17,365 nucleotides of DNA from a bacterium (GTDB lineage: Bacteria; UBP6; JAFGXH01): contig JAMOQH010000039.1 in NCBI GenBank assembly GCA_027064085.1, positions 1 to 17,365 on the forward strand, given 5' to 3'. Position numbers and translations under genes: made by a program. Every line of letters starts with the position of its first letter. The first letter of the stretch is position 1. Shown here one piece after another: positions 1 to 8,037 of this stretch. The notes under the pieces were generated by a model. It was not told where the DNA came from. It did not search any database and saw nothing but the letters and a program-made list of their open reading frames with translations.

Positions 1-1002
1 TACCTATGAGGAATTGAAACGTGATACCACAGTCATTGCCTATTACAATTAATTATTCTTTTTACTTTACCTATGAGGAATTGAAACAGATTCTTTTTAC
101 AGATTAGATTTTGACGAATATTCTTTTTACTTTACCTATGAGGAATTGAAACGAAAATCCCAAAACTTCTTGTGCCATTTCTTTTGTCTTTTTACTTTAC
201 CTATGAGGAATTGAAACCTTAATATTTTATTTAAATCTTCAATTTTCATATTCTTTTTACTTTACCTATGAGGAATTGAAACGATGAAATGTTTATATCA
301 GATAAAGCTAATAATACTTTTTACTTTACCTATGAGGAATTGAAACCTCTTTTTCATTTCTCCTCCTTATTTATCATAGATGCTTTTTACTTTACCTATG
401 AGGAATTGAAACAAGAGCAAGTCAAGACGAATATGAGTTTTTTGGAGACTTTTTACTTTACCTATGAGGAATTGAAACAAAATAAATAAAGACAAAGAAA
501 CAATAAATACAGAAACTTTTTACTTTACCTATGAGGAATTGAAACATATATTTATTCATTTCCTGCAATGTATTAAAAACTCTTTTTACTTTACCTATGA
601 GGAATTGAAACTATTGAATACGAGAAATTATTATTTCTATCTCTTCATCTTTTTACTTTACCTATGAGGAATTGAAACTCTTTAGAGTAGTCTTTTAATA
701 TCTTAGATAAGTTATCTTTTTACTTTACCTATGAGGAATTGAAACTTTATGTTGTTTTCCGCAATACTTAATTTATACATCCTTTTTACTTTACCTATGA
801 GGAATTGAAACATGTATTTTTTTGTTTTAATAGTGCTAAAAGCCATTCTTTTTACTTTACCTATGAGGAATTGAAACCCAAATCACTATAGTTTGGTATG
901 TTCTTAAATTGACTTTTTACTTTACCTATGAGGAATTGAAACATTTTTCGTGAAATTTTACTTGCTCTTGAATATGTTTCTTTTTACTTTACCTATGAGG
1001 AA

Positions 1003-1080
1003 GTTTCACCTACATAAGAGAATGAATAAACTTATTCTTTTATTTTGTACTAGAGAAATACCCGAAACCAGCATAGCTGT
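1003..1080 (+). mobile_element. Small structured insert, unit A alone, inside a CRISPR repeat
   Basis: A 78-bp sequence splits the repeat that begins at 980. The left 23 nt (980-1002, ending GAGGAA) and the right 9 nt (1081-1089, AATTGAAAC) together make the complete repeat with AA present on both sides, which looks like a 2-bp target duplication. A normal 37-nt spacer follows at 1090-1126. The insert begins GTTTCACC, has GAAAC at 1064-1068 that can pair with GTTTC at 1003-1007, contains an inner palindrome GAATA/TATTC (1024-1037), and ends with stem-loop CAGC-ATA-GCTG at 1069-1079. It is too short to encode a transposase, so if mobile it is a MITE-like passenger. The same unit recurs at 1282 and 1559. 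The strand is given only by the repeat orientation. Confidence 0.8.
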
Positions 1081-1281
1081 AATTGAAACTATCTTTGCCA
1101 GAAACCATCAGAGTCCTCATGATAAACTTTTTACTTTACCTATGAGGAATTGAAACATTACAATTATACGATTTTCTAAATTGTTAATTTTATCTTTTTA
1201 CTTTACCTATGAGGAATTGAAACTATTTATCAAATAATTTATTTATTATTCCATTCAACTTTTTACTTTACCTATGAGGAA

Positions 1282-1438
1282 GTTTCACCTACATAAGAGA
1301 ATGAATAAACTTATTCTTTTATTTTGTACTAGAGAAATACCCGAAACCAGCATAGCTGTAAATTTCAGTTTCACAAGTTTATTAAGAGTTTATTCCGTAT
1401 TTATTTACCAAAGTGATACCTGAAATCAGCATAGCTGT
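1282..1438 (+). mobile_element. Small structured insert, units A and B in tandem, inside a CRISPR repeat
   Basis: This insert lies at the same nucleotide of the repeat (left part 1259-1281, right part AATTGAAAC at 1439-1447) as the one at 1003. Unit A (1282-1359) is identical to the first copy. Two A residues (1360-1361) separate it from unit B (1362-1438, 77 bp). B is related in architecture: its ends ATTTCAG (1362-1368) and CTGAAAT (1420-1426) pair, with a further TCAC/GTGA helix inside (1371-1374 with 1413-1416). It closes with the same CAGC-ATA-GCTG stem-loop (1427-1437). No coding capacity is seen. Confidence 0.8.
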
Positions 1439-1447
1439 AATTGAAAC

Positions 1448-1545
1448 TTGTATTCTATTTTGGGTAACTTTAGATTTAAATGCTTTGTCTAGCTCCTTGT
1501 TGGGTTAATTTTATACTTTGCATTAGGTTTTAGAACAACAAGGGC
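1448..1545. other. 98-bp decayed spacer region with an inverted repeat
   Basis: The distance between the handle ending at 1447 and the next repeat fragment at 1546 is far longer than any spacer. It contains CCTTGTTG (1495-1502) and its exact complement CAACAAGG (1536-1543), 33 nt apart, extendable to GC/GC with one bulged T. A degenerate repeat may start at 1483, exactly one 35-nt spacer after 1447 (CTTT, CCT and GG coincide), but agreement is only about 11 of 30 positions. It may be one old spacer plus a lost repeat, or another small insertion. Confidence 0.4.
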
Positions 1546-1558
1546 TACCTATGAGGAA

Positions 1559-1715
1559 GTTTCACCTACATAAGAGAATGAATAAACTTATTCTTTTATT
1601 TTGTACCAGAGAAATACCCGAAACCAGCATAGCTGTAAATTTCAGTTTCACAAGTTTATTAAGAGTTTATTCCGTATTTATTTACCAAAGTGATACCTGA
1701 AATCAGCATAGCTGT
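1559..1715 (+). mobile_element. Third insert copy, units A and B, in a decayed CRISPR repeat
   Basis: Unit A (1559-1636) matches the other copies except for C instead of T at 1607. AA (1637-1638) and unit B (1639-1715) match the second copy exactly. The left flank keeps only TACCTATGAGGAA of the repeat (1546-1558). The right flank is AATTG followed by unrelated sequence, so the handle is truncated. The insertion point is again directly after GAGGAA. This copy marks the recognisable end of the array. Confidence 0.78.
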
Positions 1716-1782
1716 AATTGTGGGATTTAAAGTGATAAAAACTTACATCGTAAGGATTGAGCTGAAATCTTAAAATAGTATA
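1716..1782. other. Array-to-kinase junction with a possible repeat relic
   Basis: Between the last insert and the kinase stop there is a short perfect hairpin CTTAC-ATC-GTAAG (1742-1754) followed by GATTGA. This repeats the order seen elsewhere in the array: small stem-loop, one or two bases, then ATTGA of the handle. It may be a strongly diverged repeat end. There is no T-run directly after the hairpin, so it is a poor terminator on the plus strand. Confidence 0.3.
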
Positions 1783-3189
1783 TTATTTTTTGTTTAAAAT
1801 CATCTTAAAGTCTTTAGGAGCTAATGGCTTATTATATACTGCTTCTATTCCATACATTTTTAATTCTTCATCCGTAACATGGTTTCCCCAGCCTGTATAT
1901 AGTACGAATCTTGGAGGGGTTATGTTATTTTCTTCTGAGAATTTTAATATGAATTTAGCTACATCGAATCCAGATACTTCGTCCATTCCTAAATCCGAAA
2001 TAATTAAATCAATTTCTTTAAATTTTTTTCTAAAAATAGCAATTGCTTGATTACCAGAATTTGCTTTTAATATTTCTGCTCCAGATATTTTTTCTAATAT
2101 TTTTGCTGTTGTATTTACAATAATTCTTTCATCATCAATAAGTAGAATTTTTTTTGGGATTTTTTGTAAATTTTCTTTTAGAGAAGTGGTTGATAATAGC
2201 TCTTGATTTGTGTCACAGGAGTCTTTACTTTTATAAGGTAATGATATACTAACTTCACTACCAAAATGTTCTCTAGTTTTAAATTTAATTGTTCCTTTAT
2301 GTTTTCTTATAATGCCATAGGCATAAGATAAACCTAAACCCTTCCTTTTTAATTTTTTAGTTGTAAAAAATGGTTCAAACACTCTTTCTTTACTTTGCCA
2401 ATCCATTCCTATACCGGTATCAGATATAATGACATCAACAAGCCCCTTTCTTGTTTCTTGTGATTTTATGGTAAGAGTTCCTCCTTTTGTCATGGCCTCA
2501 AGAGCATTTTTTATAATATGAATAATTGCTAAGAGCATATCGTCATAAGAGCCGTTAATAGTGTATTCTTTTTGATAATTTTTTATTATTTCAAATTTTA
2601 TTTTTTTTAAAGATGCTTGTGAGTCCCAAATTGGTTGGTTTCTTTTTATGGCTTCATCAATTAAGTTACTTAGTGAATAAGGCTTTGTATGCATATAGCC
2701 TGATATATTACTTGAATATAAATTAACTGTGTCTACTATTTTCTGTATTCTGTTAACAGATTCATTAATTGTTTTATTTTTGCAAATTTCTTTTTCTTTT
2801 TCTAAATTATTTTTAATAATCGTTATTAGATTATAGAAAATATGAGATAATGATGCTGAAAATTGATTAATTATTTCTCTTCTTATGGAATTAATTAAGG
2901 TTTGCCTAATTATTTCTATGTGTATAACTATTAAATTATCTACCTTTTCTGCATGAATAAAGACTCTTTTATTAGGGATATCAAATGGCATAGTAATTCT
3001 TTTTTGATTTGATTTAAAATTTGTTTTTGTATATAGTAAAACCTCTTGGTATTCAATGTATACTTGTTTAGAAAATCTTTCAAATGCTTTATTAAAAAAT
3101 AAAAAATTATAGTTTTCATCTGTAATGATTGTTGGAACATAAAGAGTATTTAATAAGTTTTCGTTAATATTAGCCATAAACAAATCCAT
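1783..3189 (-). CDS. Soluble hybrid histidine kinase with C-terminal receiver domain
   Basis: This is a 468-aa signalling protein. Residues about 10-95 look like a divergent PAS-type sensor. The DHp helix carries the likely phosphorylated His116 (SLSHIFYNL), resembling the HDFNNLL type. The ATPase domain has the N box HIIKNALEAM (N228), G1 SDTGIGM (D257), FEPFFTTK and G2 GLGLSYAYG. After a linker near 320-345, a receiver domain (347-468) shows the acidic pair D352/D353, phospho-acceptor D399, T432 and K454 with following proline. No transmembrane segment or signal peptide is visible, so the signal is probably cytoplasmic. No separate response regulator or DNA-binding output lies nearby, so its partner is unknown. 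The start is uncertain: Met5 (codon at 3177) is an alternative and neither has a strong ribosome binding site. Confidence 0.93.
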   Translation of the reverse strand: MDLFMANINENLLNTLYVPTIITDENYNFLFFNKAFERFSKQVYIEYQEVLLYTKTNFKSNQKRITMPFDIPNKRVFIHAEKVDNLIVIHIEIIRQTLINSIRREIINQFSASLSHIFYNLITIIKNNLEKEKEICKNKTINESVNRIQKIVDTVNLYSSNISGYMHTKPYSLSNLIDEAIKRNQPIWDSQASLKKIKFEIIKNYQKEYTINGSYDDMLLAIIHIIKNALEAMTKGGTLTIKSQETRKGLVDVIISDTGIGMDWQSKERVFEPFFTTKKLKRKGLGLSYAYGIIRKHKGTIKFKTREHFGSEVSISLPYKSKDSCDTNQELLSTTSLKENLQKIPKKILLIDDERIIVNTTAKILEKISGAEILKANSGNQAIAIFRKKFKEIDLIISDLGMDEVSGFDVAKFILKFSEENNITPPRFVLYTGWGNHVTDEELKMYGIEAVYNKPLAPKDFKMILNKK

Positions 3190-3200
3190 TTATTTTAAGG

Positions 3201-3229
3201 AAAGTATCATTTGGTAAAAAGAAAATCAA
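3201..3229 (-). promoter_or_regulatory. Possible promoter of the histidine kinase
   Basis: On the minus strand TTGATT (3224-3229) and TACTTT (3201-3206) are separated by 17 bp. Initiation would fall only a few bases from the first possible start codon, so either the message has almost no leader or the Met5 start is used. The AT-richness makes chance matches likely. Confidence 0.3.
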
Positions 3230-3284
3230 GTATTTTTTGTTTTTGTCTTAAATTAACAATTTTAGAGTAAATTTCTGCTAAAAA

Positions 3285-3313
3285 TTGTATTATTATTCAG
3301 AATATTTTATTAT
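3285..3313 (+). promoter_or_regulatory. Possible promoter of the CpaF-type ATPase gene
   Basis: TTGTAT (3285-3290) and TATTAT (3308-3313) have 17-bp spacing. The predicted start of transcription is about 20 bases before the ATG at 3339, which has a good ribosome binding site AGGGAG at 3328-3333. Confidence 0.4.
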
Positions 3314-3338
3314 ATGGTTGTTTTATTAGGGAGTATTT

Positions 3339-5003
3339 ATGGCAGGTGGACAGAATATTTATGAAGAATCGTTACGAACATTTTTAAAACCTATTGCAGA
3401 ATATATTGATGATGCCGCGGTTTCTGAAATAATGATTAATGGGTATAAAGATATTTATATTGAAAAGGGTGGTAAACTAACAAAAGTTGAAAGTAATTTT
3501 ACAGAAAGAGGAGTTACAACACTAGCTGTTAATATTGCTCAATTTGTTGGGCGTCAAATAAATGAAGCAAATCCTAGGCTTGATGCTAGGCTTCCTGATG
3601 GTTCTCGTATCCACGTTGTTATTCCTCCGATTGCCAAGAATGGGGTTATTATTTCAATTCGTAAATTCTTTAAAGAGAAGTTAACTGTTCAAAGGCTTAT
3701 TGATTTTGGTTCATTTACTCCAGAAATGGCAAGATTTATTCAAGTAAGTGTTGAAATGGCTAAAAATATGATAATATCAGGTGGTACTGGTAGTGGTAAA
3801 ACAACACTGCTTAATGTTTTATCAAACTATATTCCAGCCTCACAAAGAATTATTACTATGGAAGATGCATTAGAACTACAATTAGCAAATGAACATGTGG
3901 TTAGATTTGAAACTAGACATCCTGATAAATTTGGTAAAGGGGCTGTAACAATGGGTGATTTACTTCACTCATCACTTAGATTAAGGCCGGATAGGATTAT
4001 TCTTGGTGAGGTTAGAGGTGGAGAGTGTTTTGATTTATTACAGGCTATGAATACTGGTCATGGAGGCTCTATGGCTACTGTTCATGCTAATAATCCAATT
4101 GAAACTTTAAGCCGTTTAGAATCTCTTGTTTTATTGGGAGGTATTGAATTGCCTTTGAGGGCTATTAGGGCTCAGGTAACTGGTGCAATACAAATTATTG
4201 TATCTGCTGCTAGATATAGTGATGGCTCAAGAAGAGTTGGGCATATTTCTGAAGTATTACCCCTTAATGAAAAAGGTGATTATGTAATGCAGGATATCTT
4301 TATATATACACAAACCCATAAAGATGAAGATGGTAAAATACATGGTTATAGTGCTCCTACTGGAGTATTACCAAGTTTTTTTCATAAATTAAAAGCTTCA
4401 GGTTATCATGATATGGATGAAAGTTTTTTTAATCCTAAAACTTATGGTTACGATGTCCCTCCATTATTTATGGGAAAAAGCTATTTTACGGGTATTGCTG
4501 AGGCATATAGAAAACATGATGATGAAGATGATAAAAAAATAATTTCAGTGTCAAAGCCTAAAAAGGAAGAAAGTGTTAAAAAAGATGTTAAAAAAAATAA
4601 AAATTCAAGTCCTAAAAAAACAAAAAAAGAAGAAATTGATGATGCTTTTAGCTTAGATGGTATTGATGATAAAAAAGAAAAAAATATTGCTATAAAAGAA
4701 AAAATTCCTAAAAAAGAAGTTAAAAAAGAAGCTAAAAAAGAAGCTAAAAAAGAAGTTCCAGTAGTTGCCTCTCCTACAATTGAGGCATCTAAAAAAGTTA
4801 AAAAGAAACTTACAGATGCTGAAAAACGAGAATTATTACTAAAAAGAAAACGAAAATTAATATTAAAAAAGAAAAAAGAAGCTTTATTAAAAAGGAAACA
4901 AGAAGAGGAAAATAAAAAACAGGAAAAAGCTAGTAAAGAAGACGAAAATAATAATGTAACTAGTCCTTTTGATGATGATGATGATGGTTGGGATGATTTT
5001 TAA
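3339..5003 (+). CDS. cpaF: CpaF/TadA-type secretion ATPase with long charged C-terminal tail
   Basis: This is a type II/IV secretion-family ATPase that normally forms a hexamer on the cytoplasmic side of the inner membrane and powers a Tad pilus or related machine. The core covers residues about 1-310: a CpaF-like N-terminal domain with ISEIMINGYKDIYIEKGG-like sequence, Walker A GGTGSGKTT (148-156), Asp box ITMEDALEL, Walker B RIILGEVRGGE (219-229), and His box GHGGSMATVHAN (240-251). From about residue 390 a 165-residue tail is dominated by Lys and Glu runs (KKEAKKEAKKE) and ends in an acidic DDDDDGWDDF. This tail is absent from ordinary CpaF proteins. No tadB, tadC, prepilin or secretin gene is near, so its machine lies elsewhere or it works alone. 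The stop overlaps the next start (TAATG). Confidence 0.9.
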   Translation: MAGGQNIYEESLRTFLKPIAEYIDDAAVSEIMINGYKDIYIEKGGKLTKVESNFTERGVTTLAVNIAQFVGRQINEANPRLDARLPDGSRIHVVIPPIAKNGVIISIRKFFKEKLTVQRLIDFGSFTPEMARFIQVSVEMAKNMIISGGTGSGKTTLLNVLSNYIPASQRIITMEDALELQLANEHVVRFETRHPDKFGKGAVTMGDLLHSSLRLRPDRIILGEVRGGECFDLLQAMNTGHGGSMATVHANNPIETLSRLESLVLLGGIELPLRAIRAQVTGAIQIIVSAARYSDGSRRVGHISEVLPLNEKGDYVMQDIFIYTQTHKDEDGKIHGYSAPTGVLPSFFHKLKASGYHDMDESFFNPKTYGYDVPPLFMGKSYFTGIAEAYRKHDDEDDKKIISVSKPKKEESVKKDVKKNKNSSPKKTKKEEIDDAFSLDGIDDKKEKNIAIKEKIPKKEVKKEAKKEAKKEVPVVASPTIEASKKVKKKLTDAEKRELLLKRKRKLILKKKKEALLKRKQEEENKKQEKASKEDENNNVTSPFDDDDDGWDDF

Positions 5004-5653
5004 TGAAAACTTTATTAATTACTGGGGCAAGTAGGGGAATTGGTTTAGAAATAGTAAAATCTTTGGAGCAAGAATACCATGTTATTAACATTTCAAGAAG
5101 TTTAGGAGCTTTAAAAGAGTTAAATATTGAACATATTGAGCTTGATTTATCAGATAGTAATAATTTTTCTAAACTTGAAAATATATTAAAAAATAAAAAA
5201 ATAGATGTATTAATTAATAATGCTGGTGGTGGGGCTCACTCTAAAATACAAAATGTTTCAATAGAAAAAATGCAAGAAGCTATTAATTTAAATTTAAATA
5301 CTGCTATAATTTTAACTAAAATCGTATCTAAAGATATGATTAAAAATAAATCAGGGCAAATTATTAATATTGCATCAATTCATGCTTTGAGTGGCAATGC
5401 TAATTCATCATTATATTCAGCTGCTAAATTTGGCTTAAGAGGTTTTAGTGAATCAATTTATTCTGAATTAAAAAAACATAGTATAAAAGTTACTACTATT
5501 TATCCGGATTTGGTTGATACTGCATTGCTACCAAAATCATTTAAAGGTAGAGATAAAATTTTAAAACCTGAAAATATATCAAATATTATTAATTATATAT
5601 TAAATTTACCCGAAAATATTGTAATTAAGGATTTAACTGTTAGTTATATTTAG
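5003..5653 (+). CDS. Short-chain dehydrogenase/reductase (SDR), NAD(P)-dependent
   Basis: A classical-type Rossmann-fold oxidoreductase of 216 aa, at the short end for the family. The cofactor-binding motif is TGASRGIG (7-14), NNAG is at 72-75, and catalytic residues are S125, Y138 and K142 (YSAAK), with an Asn in NLN near 97-99. The C-terminal substrate loop is brief, so the substrate cannot be told. Its ATG overlaps the ATPase stop by one base, so it is translationally coupled to a secretion ATPase with no obvious functional link. Its stop overlaps the convergent mutS2 stop by 4 bp, leaving no room for a terminator. Confidence 0.92.
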   Translation: MKTLLITGASRGIGLEIVKSLEQEYHVINISRSLGALKELNIEHIELDLSDSNNFSKLENILKNKKIDVLINNAGGGAHSKIQNVSIEKMQEAINLNLNTAIILTKIVSKDMIKNKSGQIINIASIHALSGNANSSLYSAAKFGLRGFSESIYSELKKHSIKVTTIYPDLVDTALLPKSFKGRDKILKPENISNIINYILNLPENIVIKDLTVSYI

Positions 5654-8037
5654 ATATCCAACATTGCAATAGTAACGGCATCTCCACCATCATCATTAGG
5701 AGCCTTCATATAAGACCTTACAAGAGGGTGTTTTTTAAGAAATCCTCTGACATGTTTTTTTAGTATTCCCGTTCCGTGTCCATGTATAATGTATCCATAT
5801 TGTTTATTTTGGTAATATAGTTTATCTAAAAAATGGTCTATTAATGGTTCACTATCGTATCTGTCTTTACCAATAATATCAAGAGTATTCTTTTTTGTTC
5901 TTATCATTGTTTCATCTGTAATGGTTTTATCATTTTCTTTGCTTTCTACTTTAATTTTCTTTTTAATTTTATCTATCATTAAATCATTTTTAGATTTTGC
6001 AGGAGCTAAGTCATTTATTTTAGTTGTTATTTTCATATTATCAGTTTGAACAGTGATTCTTTTTTTGGATATATTTATTATTGTTCCATGCGTTGAAAGA
6101 GATTTTACAAAAACTTTTTGAGCAACAGATATTTCATTTAAATTTAATATATCATCATCATCAAGAGATACTTTTTTATTTAATTCTTTAATCTGATTAT
6201 CTTTTTTAAACCTTTTATTATCTAATTTTTTCAACATATCTTCTTGTTCTTTTTTAGATTTTTTATTTATATCTTTAAGATAGGTTTTCATTTGTAATCT
6301 AGTGTTATCAAGCTCTTCTTTTATCATTTTTTCTTTTTTTAGCATAAATTTAGATTTTTCAAGTTTGAATTTTCTTTCTTCTTCTTGAAATTTTTTGAAT
6401 TTTTTTTCATTTTCTTTGAGTTTCTGGCTTTTTTCTTCATAAAAGTTGATTTTTTTATTCAATTTATCAATTAGTTTAGTTACAGAGTTTTCTTTTATTG
6501 CAAGGTGTTTTTTGGAGTTTTCTATTATTTCAGGGCTTATTTTTAAATTTTTGGCTATTTCAAGAGGTAAAGAATCACTAATTTGATTATAATATAGTTT
6601 ATAAGTTGGTTCCATATTTTCATCAAGTTGAACAGAAGCATTTAAAAACTTATCTTGCTCAAGTGCGTAGTATTTTAGTTCGTTATAGTGAGTTGTAACT
6701 ATAGTTCTAACTCTTTTATTACTTACTGAATCTAAATATCCCTTTGATAGAGCTGCACCGGTTTCAGGAGCTGTATTTTGTAAAATTTCATCTATTAAAA
6801 TGAGGTCATCTTTATTTGATTTTTTATATGCATAATCTAATTCTTTTAAGTGAGATGTAAATGATGACTGATTTTTTTCTATTGATTGATTATCTCCAAT
6901 AATGGCAAATAAGTTATTTGATATGAAAAATGTAGAGTCTTCTTCTAAAGGAGGGAATATCGCTGATTTTACTAGTAAATACACCATACCTATTGTTTTT
7001 AAGGCAACTGTTTTACCGCCTGCATTAGGGCCAGATATTATCATTGTATGGGTGTTATTATCCATTTTAATGTTAATAGCTTTGGTTTTATTTGGGTTTT
7101 CAAGTTTCATCAATGGATTATATACATTTCGCAGGTCTATATTAAATGAAGGACTTATTGTAACCGGGTGGGCATCAAGGGCTTGAGAAAATTTAAATCT
7201 ACTAAAAAATAAATCTATTTGAACATATACTTCAATTAAATCAAGTAAACTTTGCATATATGGTTTTAAAACTAATATTAATTCTTTGAGTATTCTTTTT
7301 ATTTCCTCTTCTTCCTTTTTCTTTTCAAGAATTAGTTTATTATTGCTTTCTAATACTTCGGTAGGCTCTATAAAAACCGTTTCACCTGTATTTGACCTAT
7401 CATGAACTATTCCTTTTATTGTGCCTTTAAAGCTAGATTTTAATGGAAGGACAAACCTTTCTTTTCTTATCGTATAAAAATCTTCTTGTAAATATTTATT
7501 TAAATCTCGTCTTGATAAATAATCCTTGAGGGTATTTCTAATGTGTAGTTCATGGCTTTTAATTCGTTTTCTGATATCTAAAAGTTTCATTGAGGCTGTT
7601 GATTTAACAATTCCGTTTTTATCAATAATTTTGTATACTTCTTTATCGCTTTCGGGGATTTCTCTTGAAAATAAATCAATTTTCTTTTTTAAAATCGAAA
7701 ATTCACCATCTTTAAGACTTTCAACATATTTTGAAAATTTTCTAAAATCATCACTCATAGATGCAATTTCTAAAAAATCCTCTGGATTAATTAATAAATT
7801 TTTCTCTATATATTTTAAGTGAGTTCTAATATCTACTTTCTTTAAAAAATTAAATTTATCTTCATTTATTGGGTATTTGAAAAATTCTTCTGTTACTTTA
7901 ATATTCTCTTTTAATTCGTTACCGGATTCAAAAATAAAGAGTGTATAAAGTTCTTTTGTTACATTATATTTAAAATATTTTTTAAAATATTCAATAATTT
8001 TATCAAAATCAAGTGTTTCTAGTAATTGTTTATTCAT
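5650..8037 (-). CDS. mutS2: MutS2 family ATPase/endonuclease with Smr domain
   Basis: This 795-aa protein has the usual MutS2 length and order: helical core and clamp (about 1-300), ABC-type ATPase (about 320-520), long charged coiled-coil (about 510-640), then a C-terminal Smr domain (about 720-795). Walker A is GPNAGGKT (336-343), Walker B LILIDEI (412-418), followed by TTHYNELK. The Smr domain keeps HGHGTG and the final hydrophobic strand. MutS2 proteins suppress recombination and, in some bacteria, rescue collided ribosomes. The signature after Walker B reads EILQNTAPETG rather than the usual ELGxGTDPxEG, and the LDLR/LDLHG-type motif of Smr is LDIIG, so activity may differ. It is third in an operon with pheT and a lipoprotein, with a ribosome site AGAGGA before the ATG. 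Confidence 0.93.
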   Translation of the reverse strand: MNKQLLETLDFDKIIEYFKKYFKYNVTKELYTLFIFESGNELKENIKVTEEFFKYPINEDKFNFLKKVDIRTHLKYIEKNLLINPEDFLEIASMSDDFRKFSKYVESLKDGEFSILKKKIDLFSREIPESDKEVYKIIDKNGIVKSTASMKLLDIRKRIKSHELHIRNTLKDYLSRRDLNKYLQEDFYTIRKERFVLPLKSSFKGTIKGIVHDRSNTGETVFIEPTEVLESNNKLILEKKKEEEEIKRILKELILVLKPYMQSLLDLIEVYVQIDLFFSRFKFSQALDAHPVTISPSFNIDLRNVYNPLMKLENPNKTKAINIKMDNNTHTMIISGPNAGGKTVALKTIGMVYLLVKSAIFPPLEEDSTFFISNNLFAIIGDNQSIEKNQSSFTSHLKELDYAYKKSNKDDLILIDEILQNTAPETGAALSKGYLDSVSNKRVRTIVTTHYNELKYYALEQDKFLNASVQLDENMEPTYKLYYNQISDSLPLEIAKNLKISPEIIENSKKHLAIKENSVTKLIDKLNKKINFYEEKSQKLKENEKKFKKFQEEERKFKLEKSKFMLKKEKMIKEELDNTRLQMKTYLKDINKKSKKEQEDMLKKLDNKRFKKDNQIKELNKKVSLDDDDILNLNEISVAQKVFVKSLSTHGTIINISKKRITVQTDNMKITTKINDLAPAKSKNDLMIDKIKKKIKVESKENDKTITDETMIRTKKNTLDIIGKDRYDSEPLIDHFLDKLYYQNKQYGYIIHGHGTGILKKHVRGFLKKHPLVRSYMKAPNDDGGDAVTIAMLDI

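What the first reader, a model, noticed from the sequence alone, without database searches (positions are those of the whole stretch)
980..1715. A small structured element inserted three times at the same nucleotide of CRISPR repeats
Repeats at 980, 1259 and the relic at 1546 are all interrupted directly after GAGGAA by the same unit A (78 bp), with AA on both sides as a putative target duplication. Two complete repeats (1127, 1194) lie between the interrupted ones and the flanking spacers differ. Thus simple duplication of a segment does not explain it, and neither does inheritance during spacer acquisition, which would pass an interrupted leader-end repeat to all later repeats. That leaves site-specific insertion into the repeat, or gene conversion between repeats. 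I know of no named element with this habit, but cannot search.
Basis: partly seen in the sequence, partly recalled or inferred. Interest (0 to 1): 0.82.

Follow-up and report, generated by a model that had tools for sequence, protein, structure and literature searches.

The report
Small insert copied between CRISPR repeats
In an unnamed bacterium, one short foreign-looking DNA piece interrupts three neighbouring repeats of a CRISPR immune array at the same base; it occurs nowhere else in the assembled genome, and it most likely arrived once and was then copied from repeat to repeat, which would show that repeats in an array can overwrite one another.

Summary
A type I-B array ends at about window 1447, with a partial repeat at 1546-1558. 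Two repeats (980, 1259) and this partial repeat are split after GAGGAA by unit A (80 nt). Copies 2 and 3 also carry unit B (79 nt), a diverged homologue of A. Leader and cas genes lie on contig C174, so the split repeats are at the trailer end.

(1) A/B occur nowhere else in the genome, in relatives, or in the phage and plasmid collections. A 19-nt A/B motif has only chance matches in 84,980 species. (2) The stretch between copies 2 and 3 is a relic of the leader of an Rpn-type 'recombination-promoting nuclease' gene. Copy 3 is a repeat fragment fused to it. (3) Deleting B between two 14-nt direct repeats gives copy 1 exactly.

Best reading (about 0.5): one arrival of A-B in one repeat, then local copying by RecA-independent template switching. 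Site-specific insertion by an SMR- or MITE-like element remains possible (about 0.25). Nothing shows mobility: there is no parent element, no copy elsewhere, and no target duplication beyond an ambiguous AA.

The parts
1..979 (+). Type I-B CRISPR array, intact repeats and unique 34-37 nt spacers; the leader end lies beyond the contig edge (G000:C174)
   Evidence: leader and cas genes on C174:
980..1002 (+). Left 23 nt of split repeat 1
1003..1082 (+). Unit A, copy 1 (80 nt incl. terminal AA; no B)
   Evidence: equals the product of deleting B between the 14-nt direct repeats
1083..1089 (+). Right 7 nt (TTGAAAC) of split repeat 1
1127..1223 (+). Two intact repeats (1127-1156, 1194-1223) between split repeats 1 and 2
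1259..1281 (+). Left 23 nt of split repeat 2
1282..1361 (+). Unit A, copy 2
1362..1440 (+). Unit B, copy 2 (79 nt, homologous to A, ends in the same 14 nt CAGCATAGCTGTAA)
1441..1447 (+). Right 7 nt (TTGAAAC) of split repeat 2
1464..1547 (+). Relic of the leader region of an Rpn-type nuclease gene (73% identical to G000:C57:12027-12110, which ends at the start codon of a PDDEXK_2/Rpn ORF)
1546..1558 (+). Partial left half of a repeat (13 nt TACCTATGAGGAA), fused to the Rpn relic with 2-nt overlap
1559..1638 (+). Unit A, copy 3 (C at 1607, the state shared with B)
1639..1717 (+). Unit B, copy 3
1718..1745 (+). TTG remnant of the repeat, then a weak match to the Rpn ORF (p 0.003-0.012)

Best explanation
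A tandem pair of small non-coding units (A, 80 nt, and B, 79 nt, about 61% identical) of unknown outside origin entered one repeat of the array once, between GAGGAA and TTGAAAC. That composite repeat then served as donor for neighbouring repeats. During replication or repair a growing strand switched from a normal repeat into the composite repeat through the shared 23-nt left half, copied A-B, and switched back through the shared right end AATTGAAAC (9 nt, because the insert itself ends in AA). One copy lost B by deletion between the two 14-nt direct repeats CAGCATAGCTGTAA. Copy 3 was fused, with part of its repeat, to a decayed Rpn-type nuclease gene. Shown: sequences, homology of A and B, confinement to this array, identical junctions, the exact deletion product, and the Rpn leader relic between copies 2 and 3. 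Inferred: the single arrival, the template switching, and any part played by an Rpn nuclease, a family reported to promote RecA-independent recombination by template switching (PMC5350276).
For: The five A/B units are the only significant matches in the own genome (E <= 8e-22; next best own match 0.14) and none occurs in 30 further genomes, including the only two others of its family (blastn in 60). Copies 2 and 3 carry the same composite with the same junctions. Deleting B between the 14-nt repeats gives copy 1 to the letter. A1 and A2 share a derived T where A3 and both B have C, so A1 and A2 share a more recent ancestor with each other than with A3. Flanking spacers are unrelated, so whole segments were not duplicated. 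Copy 3 is a repeat fragment plus A-B fused to an Rpn relic, i.e. a fragment join with 2-nt microhomology. RecA-independent misalignment is the favoured source of rearrangement for short CRISPR repeats (PMC8047081); Rpn nucleases raise RecA-independent recombination with a template-switch model (PMC5350276).
Against: The right-hand homology is only 9 nt, and two switches per copy are needed. No spacer duplication or other sign of recombination is seen elsewhere in the array. The Rpn link is a relic nearby, not a demonstrated actor, and copy 3 may owe its shape to a later deletion. The source of A-B is unknown. A short-read assembly error cannot be checked.
Confidence: 0.5

Rival explanations
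1. Site-specific insertion: A/B is a transposase-free mobile repeat (like the SMRs of Haloquadratum, or a MITE or PATE) that recognises the CRISPR repeat and inserted two or three times between GAGGAA and TTGAAAC, once as A and otherwise as A-B.
For: Identical junctions, unrelated flanking spacers, unit ends RTTTC...GAAAY that can pair (G-C in A, A-T in B) and a shared terminal hairpin. The genome holds three IS200-type transposase genes. SMRs are 80-110 bp, have inverted ends, make no target duplication and prefer one kind of target (PMC3119063). Outside the array no exact 12-nt TATGAGGAATTG site exists, so a long target would explain confinement.
Against: No copy anywhere else, none at the 25 one-mismatch sites, no parent; regions around the IS200-type genes do not resemble A or B. 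The composite A-B would have to move as a unit. Copy 3 is bounded by a repeat fragment fused to a relic.
Confidence: 0.25
2. Spacer acquisition: the composite repeat was at some time the repeat copied by Cas1-Cas2 (at the leader or ectopically), so that copies 2 and 3, or more, are duplicated repeats; later recombination placed intact repeats between them.
For: Acquisition duplicates a repeat without duplicating flanks; ectopic acquisition and later spacer loss are known (PMC8047081).
Against: The leader-end repeat would have to change from A-B to intact to A to intact along the array; the present leader-end repeat is intact. The stretch between copies 2 and 3 is an Rpn relic, not a spacer.
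Confidence: 0.12
3. Assembly artefact: one composite repeat was multiplied by mis-assembly of short reads in a repeat array of a mixed population.
For: The window is from a 195-contig assembly and the contig breaks inside this array.
Against: The copies differ at 1607 and in the presence of B; the longest exact repeat is 113 nt, which large k-mers or paired reads span; all joints continue into unique spacers.
Confidence: 0.1
4. A and B are spacer-plus-repeat units of a second, different CRISPR array spliced into this one.
For: Unit length 79-80 nt, conserved right end with a hairpin just before TTGAAAC, a decayed second cas1 on C92.
Against: A and B are similar also in the part that would be spacer (columns 7-36, p 0.001); no array with this right end exists in the genome or, by exact motif, in 84,980 species.
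Confidence: 0.03

Closest known systems
RecA-independent replication misalignment / template switching in CRISPR arrays (reviewed in PMC8047081)
   Same: Short, close direct repeats; events near the array's old end; no RecA-length homology needed
   Different: Known outcomes are deletion or duplication of spacer-repeat units; here an insert inside a repeat would have been copied to other repeats without their spacers
Rpn (YhgA-like) recombination-promoting nucleases (PMC5350276; TIGR01784, PF12784)
   Same: A relic of the leader of such a gene lies between copies 2 and 3; the family is proposed to act through template switching
   Different: Only a relic is present at the locus; no evidence links the protein to this event
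Small mobile repeats (SMR) of Haloquadratum walsbyi (PMC3119063)
   Same: 80-110 bp, non-coding, inverted ends, no target duplication, one preferred target
   Different: SMRs have many copies across the genome and target IS605/PATE ends; A/B is confined to one array
MITEs in CRISPR loci (HqIRS37 in Haloquadratum, PMC3119063; a 132-bp MITE in euryarchaeal loci, PMC4390879)
   Same: Small non-coding insert in a CRISPR locus
   Different: HqIRS37 sits in a spacer and is a single insertion; here three repeats carry it at the same base, with no dispersed copies or parent transposon

Membership tests
MITE | Terminal inverted repeats related to a transposon of the genome | tested here: not met
   Only 5 nt (A) and 7 nt (B) pair at the ends; no parent or other copy in the genome
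MITE | Target site duplication | tested here: inconclusive
   AA on both sides of the insert, also explained by an 80-nt insert ending in AA
MITE | Dispersed copies | tested here: not met
   Copies only in this array
Small mobile repeat (SMR) | 80-110 bp, inverted ends, no target duplication | tested here: inconclusive
   Length fits; ends pair only over 5-7 nt
Small mobile repeat (SMR) | Multiple independent insertions with a target preference | tested here: inconclusive
   Three sites in one array, explicable by one insertion plus copying
IS200/IS605-derived element (PATE) | Subterminal hairpins at both ends shared with an IS200/IS605 element | tested here: not met
   Right hairpin CAGC-ATA-GCTG in both units; left hairpin only in A; the three Y1 transposase regions carry nothing similar
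Type I-B CRISPR array | 30-nt repeats, 34-37 nt unique spacers, leader, cas1b/cas2/cas4/cas3/cas6 | tested here: met
Rpn relic | Homology to the leader of an Rpn/PDDEXK_2 gene | tested here: met
   73% over 84 nt to C57, E 2.6e-5, shuffles 0 of 1000; further copies on C181, C15, C8; protein PF12784 over cut-off, TIGR01784 below its cut-off
Template-switch conversion between repeats | A donor copy and a shared sequence on both sides of the transferred block | tested here: met
   23 nt left (GAGGAA end) and AATTGAAAC right are shared with every intact repeat; donor copies within about 0.6 kb
Template-switch conversion between repeats | Observed polymorphism between strains with and without the block at one repeat | not testable with these tools
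   No second strain held; metagenome scan not available

The most novel reading that the evidence does not exclude
A/B is a family of tiny elements whose home is the CRISPR repeat itself. It inserts at or next to the Cas6 cutting site (predicted GAGGA^ATTGAAAC, within the ambiguity of the AA), and each unit ends in its own small hairpin followed by the same A^A(TTGAAAC) context, so that downstream crRNAs could still be made while 80-nt unit RNAs are released. This would be the first element specialised to live inside CRISPR repeats without silencing them.
Probability: 0.15. Interest if true: 0.85.

Novelty: new variant of a known kind. Interest (0 to 1): 0.45.

Why it matters
Identity among the repeats of a CRISPR array is usually put down to new repeats being copied from the leader-end repeat during acquisition. 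If an insert can pass from repeat to repeat without the neighbouring spacers, repeats can also overwrite one another by conversion, a second way to keep or corrupt their sequence. It can be tested directly, because the insert is a visible marker. If instead the insert targets repeats, it would be a mobile element specialised on an immune locus.

Tried and rejected
(1) A as a phage-derived spacer: the first 36 nt of A match a phage contig at a DNA methyltransferase gene. A reversed control 18-mer and a B 18-mer each also hit one contig, the alignment needs a gap that breaks the reading frame, and A and B are homologous in that very part: treated as chance. (2) Dispersed MITE: none found with a sequence model of A/B. 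(3) IS200/IS605 parent: three Y1 genes, none with A/B-like flanks. (4) Known RNA family: only CRISPR-DR2 passes; the rest is chance. (5) Phages, plasmids and viral contigs: no match or chance; the 19-nt motif has five genome matches, none in a CRISPR array or with A/B around it. (6) Degenerate CRISPR repeats inside A, B or the flanks: not convincing, p 0.04 or weaker. (7) Shared flanks of the copies as proof of segment duplication: not significant. (8) The nearest arrays in relatives: G002 has a similar repeat, its repeats intact in the part read. (9) Literature searches found no repeat-specific element.

Full report
What is there. The window starts inside a type I-B CRISPR array (contig C39) whose leader end is on contig C174: an intact first repeat, a leader, then cas2, cas1b and cas4, and further on cas6, cas3, cas7-like genes. 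The array runs towards the trailer end at about window 1447, with a partial repeat at 1546-1558. Sixteen full repeats in the window are identical, with 18 unique spacers of 34-37 nt. Two repeats near the trailer end, and the partial one, are split after GAGGAA.

The insert. Copy 1 is A (80 nt); copies 2 and 3 are A plus B (80 + 79 nt). A and B align over their whole length with one gap (about 61% identical). They share the last 14 nt, CAGCATAGCTGTAA, and are similar also in the inner parts (p 0.0012 for columns 7-36). They are therefore two diverged members of one family, not two unrelated spacers. With almost no divergence between copies of the same unit, the A/B split must have happened elsewhere, before arrival (inference). 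The shared structure is modest: ends RTTTC and GAAAY that can pair, and a four-pair hairpin at the right end.

Where else it occurs. Nowhere that could be searched. In the own genome (94.7% complete) the five units are the only significant matches. Thirty further genomes by model and sixty by blastn have none. Phages, plasmids and viral contigs have none, and the 19-nt motif in the species collection gives only five scattered matches, in line with chance.

Order of events. At 1607 copy 3 has C, as B has in both copies at the aligned column, whereas A1 and A2 have T. Copies 1 and 2 therefore share the more recent ancestor. Deleting B between the two 14-nt direct repeats gives copy 1 exactly. 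The flanks of the copies share nothing significant.

The stretch between copies 2 and 3. It is not a spacer. Bases 1464-1547 match the leader (a small upstream ORF and a ribosome-binding site) of Rpn-type PD-(D/E)XK genes that occur in several copies in this genome (C57, C181, C15, C8). The match ends at the start codon, where 13 nt of CRISPR repeat begin. The right flank of copy 3 also resembles the Rpn ORF, more weakly (p 0.003-0.012). Copy 3 is therefore a repeat fragment with A-B joined to a decayed Rpn gene, by a deletion or by a fragment copy. A repeat decaying slowly by point mutation is unlikely, because A-B in copy 3 carries no change of its own.

Mechanism. Conversion between repeats needs one arrival of A-B. 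It explains the identical junctions, the composite, the confinement to the array and the deletion product. The transferred block has 23 nt of shared sequence on the left and 9 nt on the right with every intact repeat. That is too little for RecA (general knowledge) but in the range of replication misalignment, which is the favoured process for short CRISPR repeats (PMC8047081). Rpn nucleases are reported to raise RecA-independent recombination, with a template-switch model (PMC5350276). Their relic at this spot is suggestive, no more. Insertion by a targeted small mobile repeat remains the main rival; the SMRs of Haloquadratum (PMC3119063) show that such habits exist. Against it stand the lack of other copies and of a parent, and the composite. 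For it, no exact 12-nt target exists outside the array, so confinement alone does not exclude it.

Cas6 remark. From general knowledge of type I-B (not tested here), Cas6 cuts to leave the 8-nt tag ATTGAAAC, i.e. at GAGGA^ATTGAAAC. The insertion point coincides with this within the AA ambiguity. With about 30 possible positions and three that fit, the coincidence is worth little by itself.

Verdict.

Noticed in passing
window 1464-1547; G000:C57, C181, C15, C8: Rpn-type nuclease genes with a conserved small upstream ORF occur in several copies; three contigs (C181, C15, C8) end at or near this region. A relic of it lies in the CRISPR trailer.
   Followed up: partly
G000:C92:760-1305 (L117): A decayed second cas1 gene (open frame about 165 aa, broken) without an array or other cas genes nearby.
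   Followed up: partly
G000:C174 (L042) 2706-7120: Between cas4 and cas6, and between cas6 and cas3, lie two AAA ATPase genes (weakly like MADS3 defence ATPase) and small genes without family: possibly a defence module inside the cas operon.
   Followed up: no
window 3339-5003: CpaF-like secretion ATPase with a long lysine-rich C-terminal tail.
   Followed up: no
G000:C39/C174: The array is broken between the leader-proximal repeat (C174) and window position 1; an unknown number of spacers is missing.
   Followed up: no
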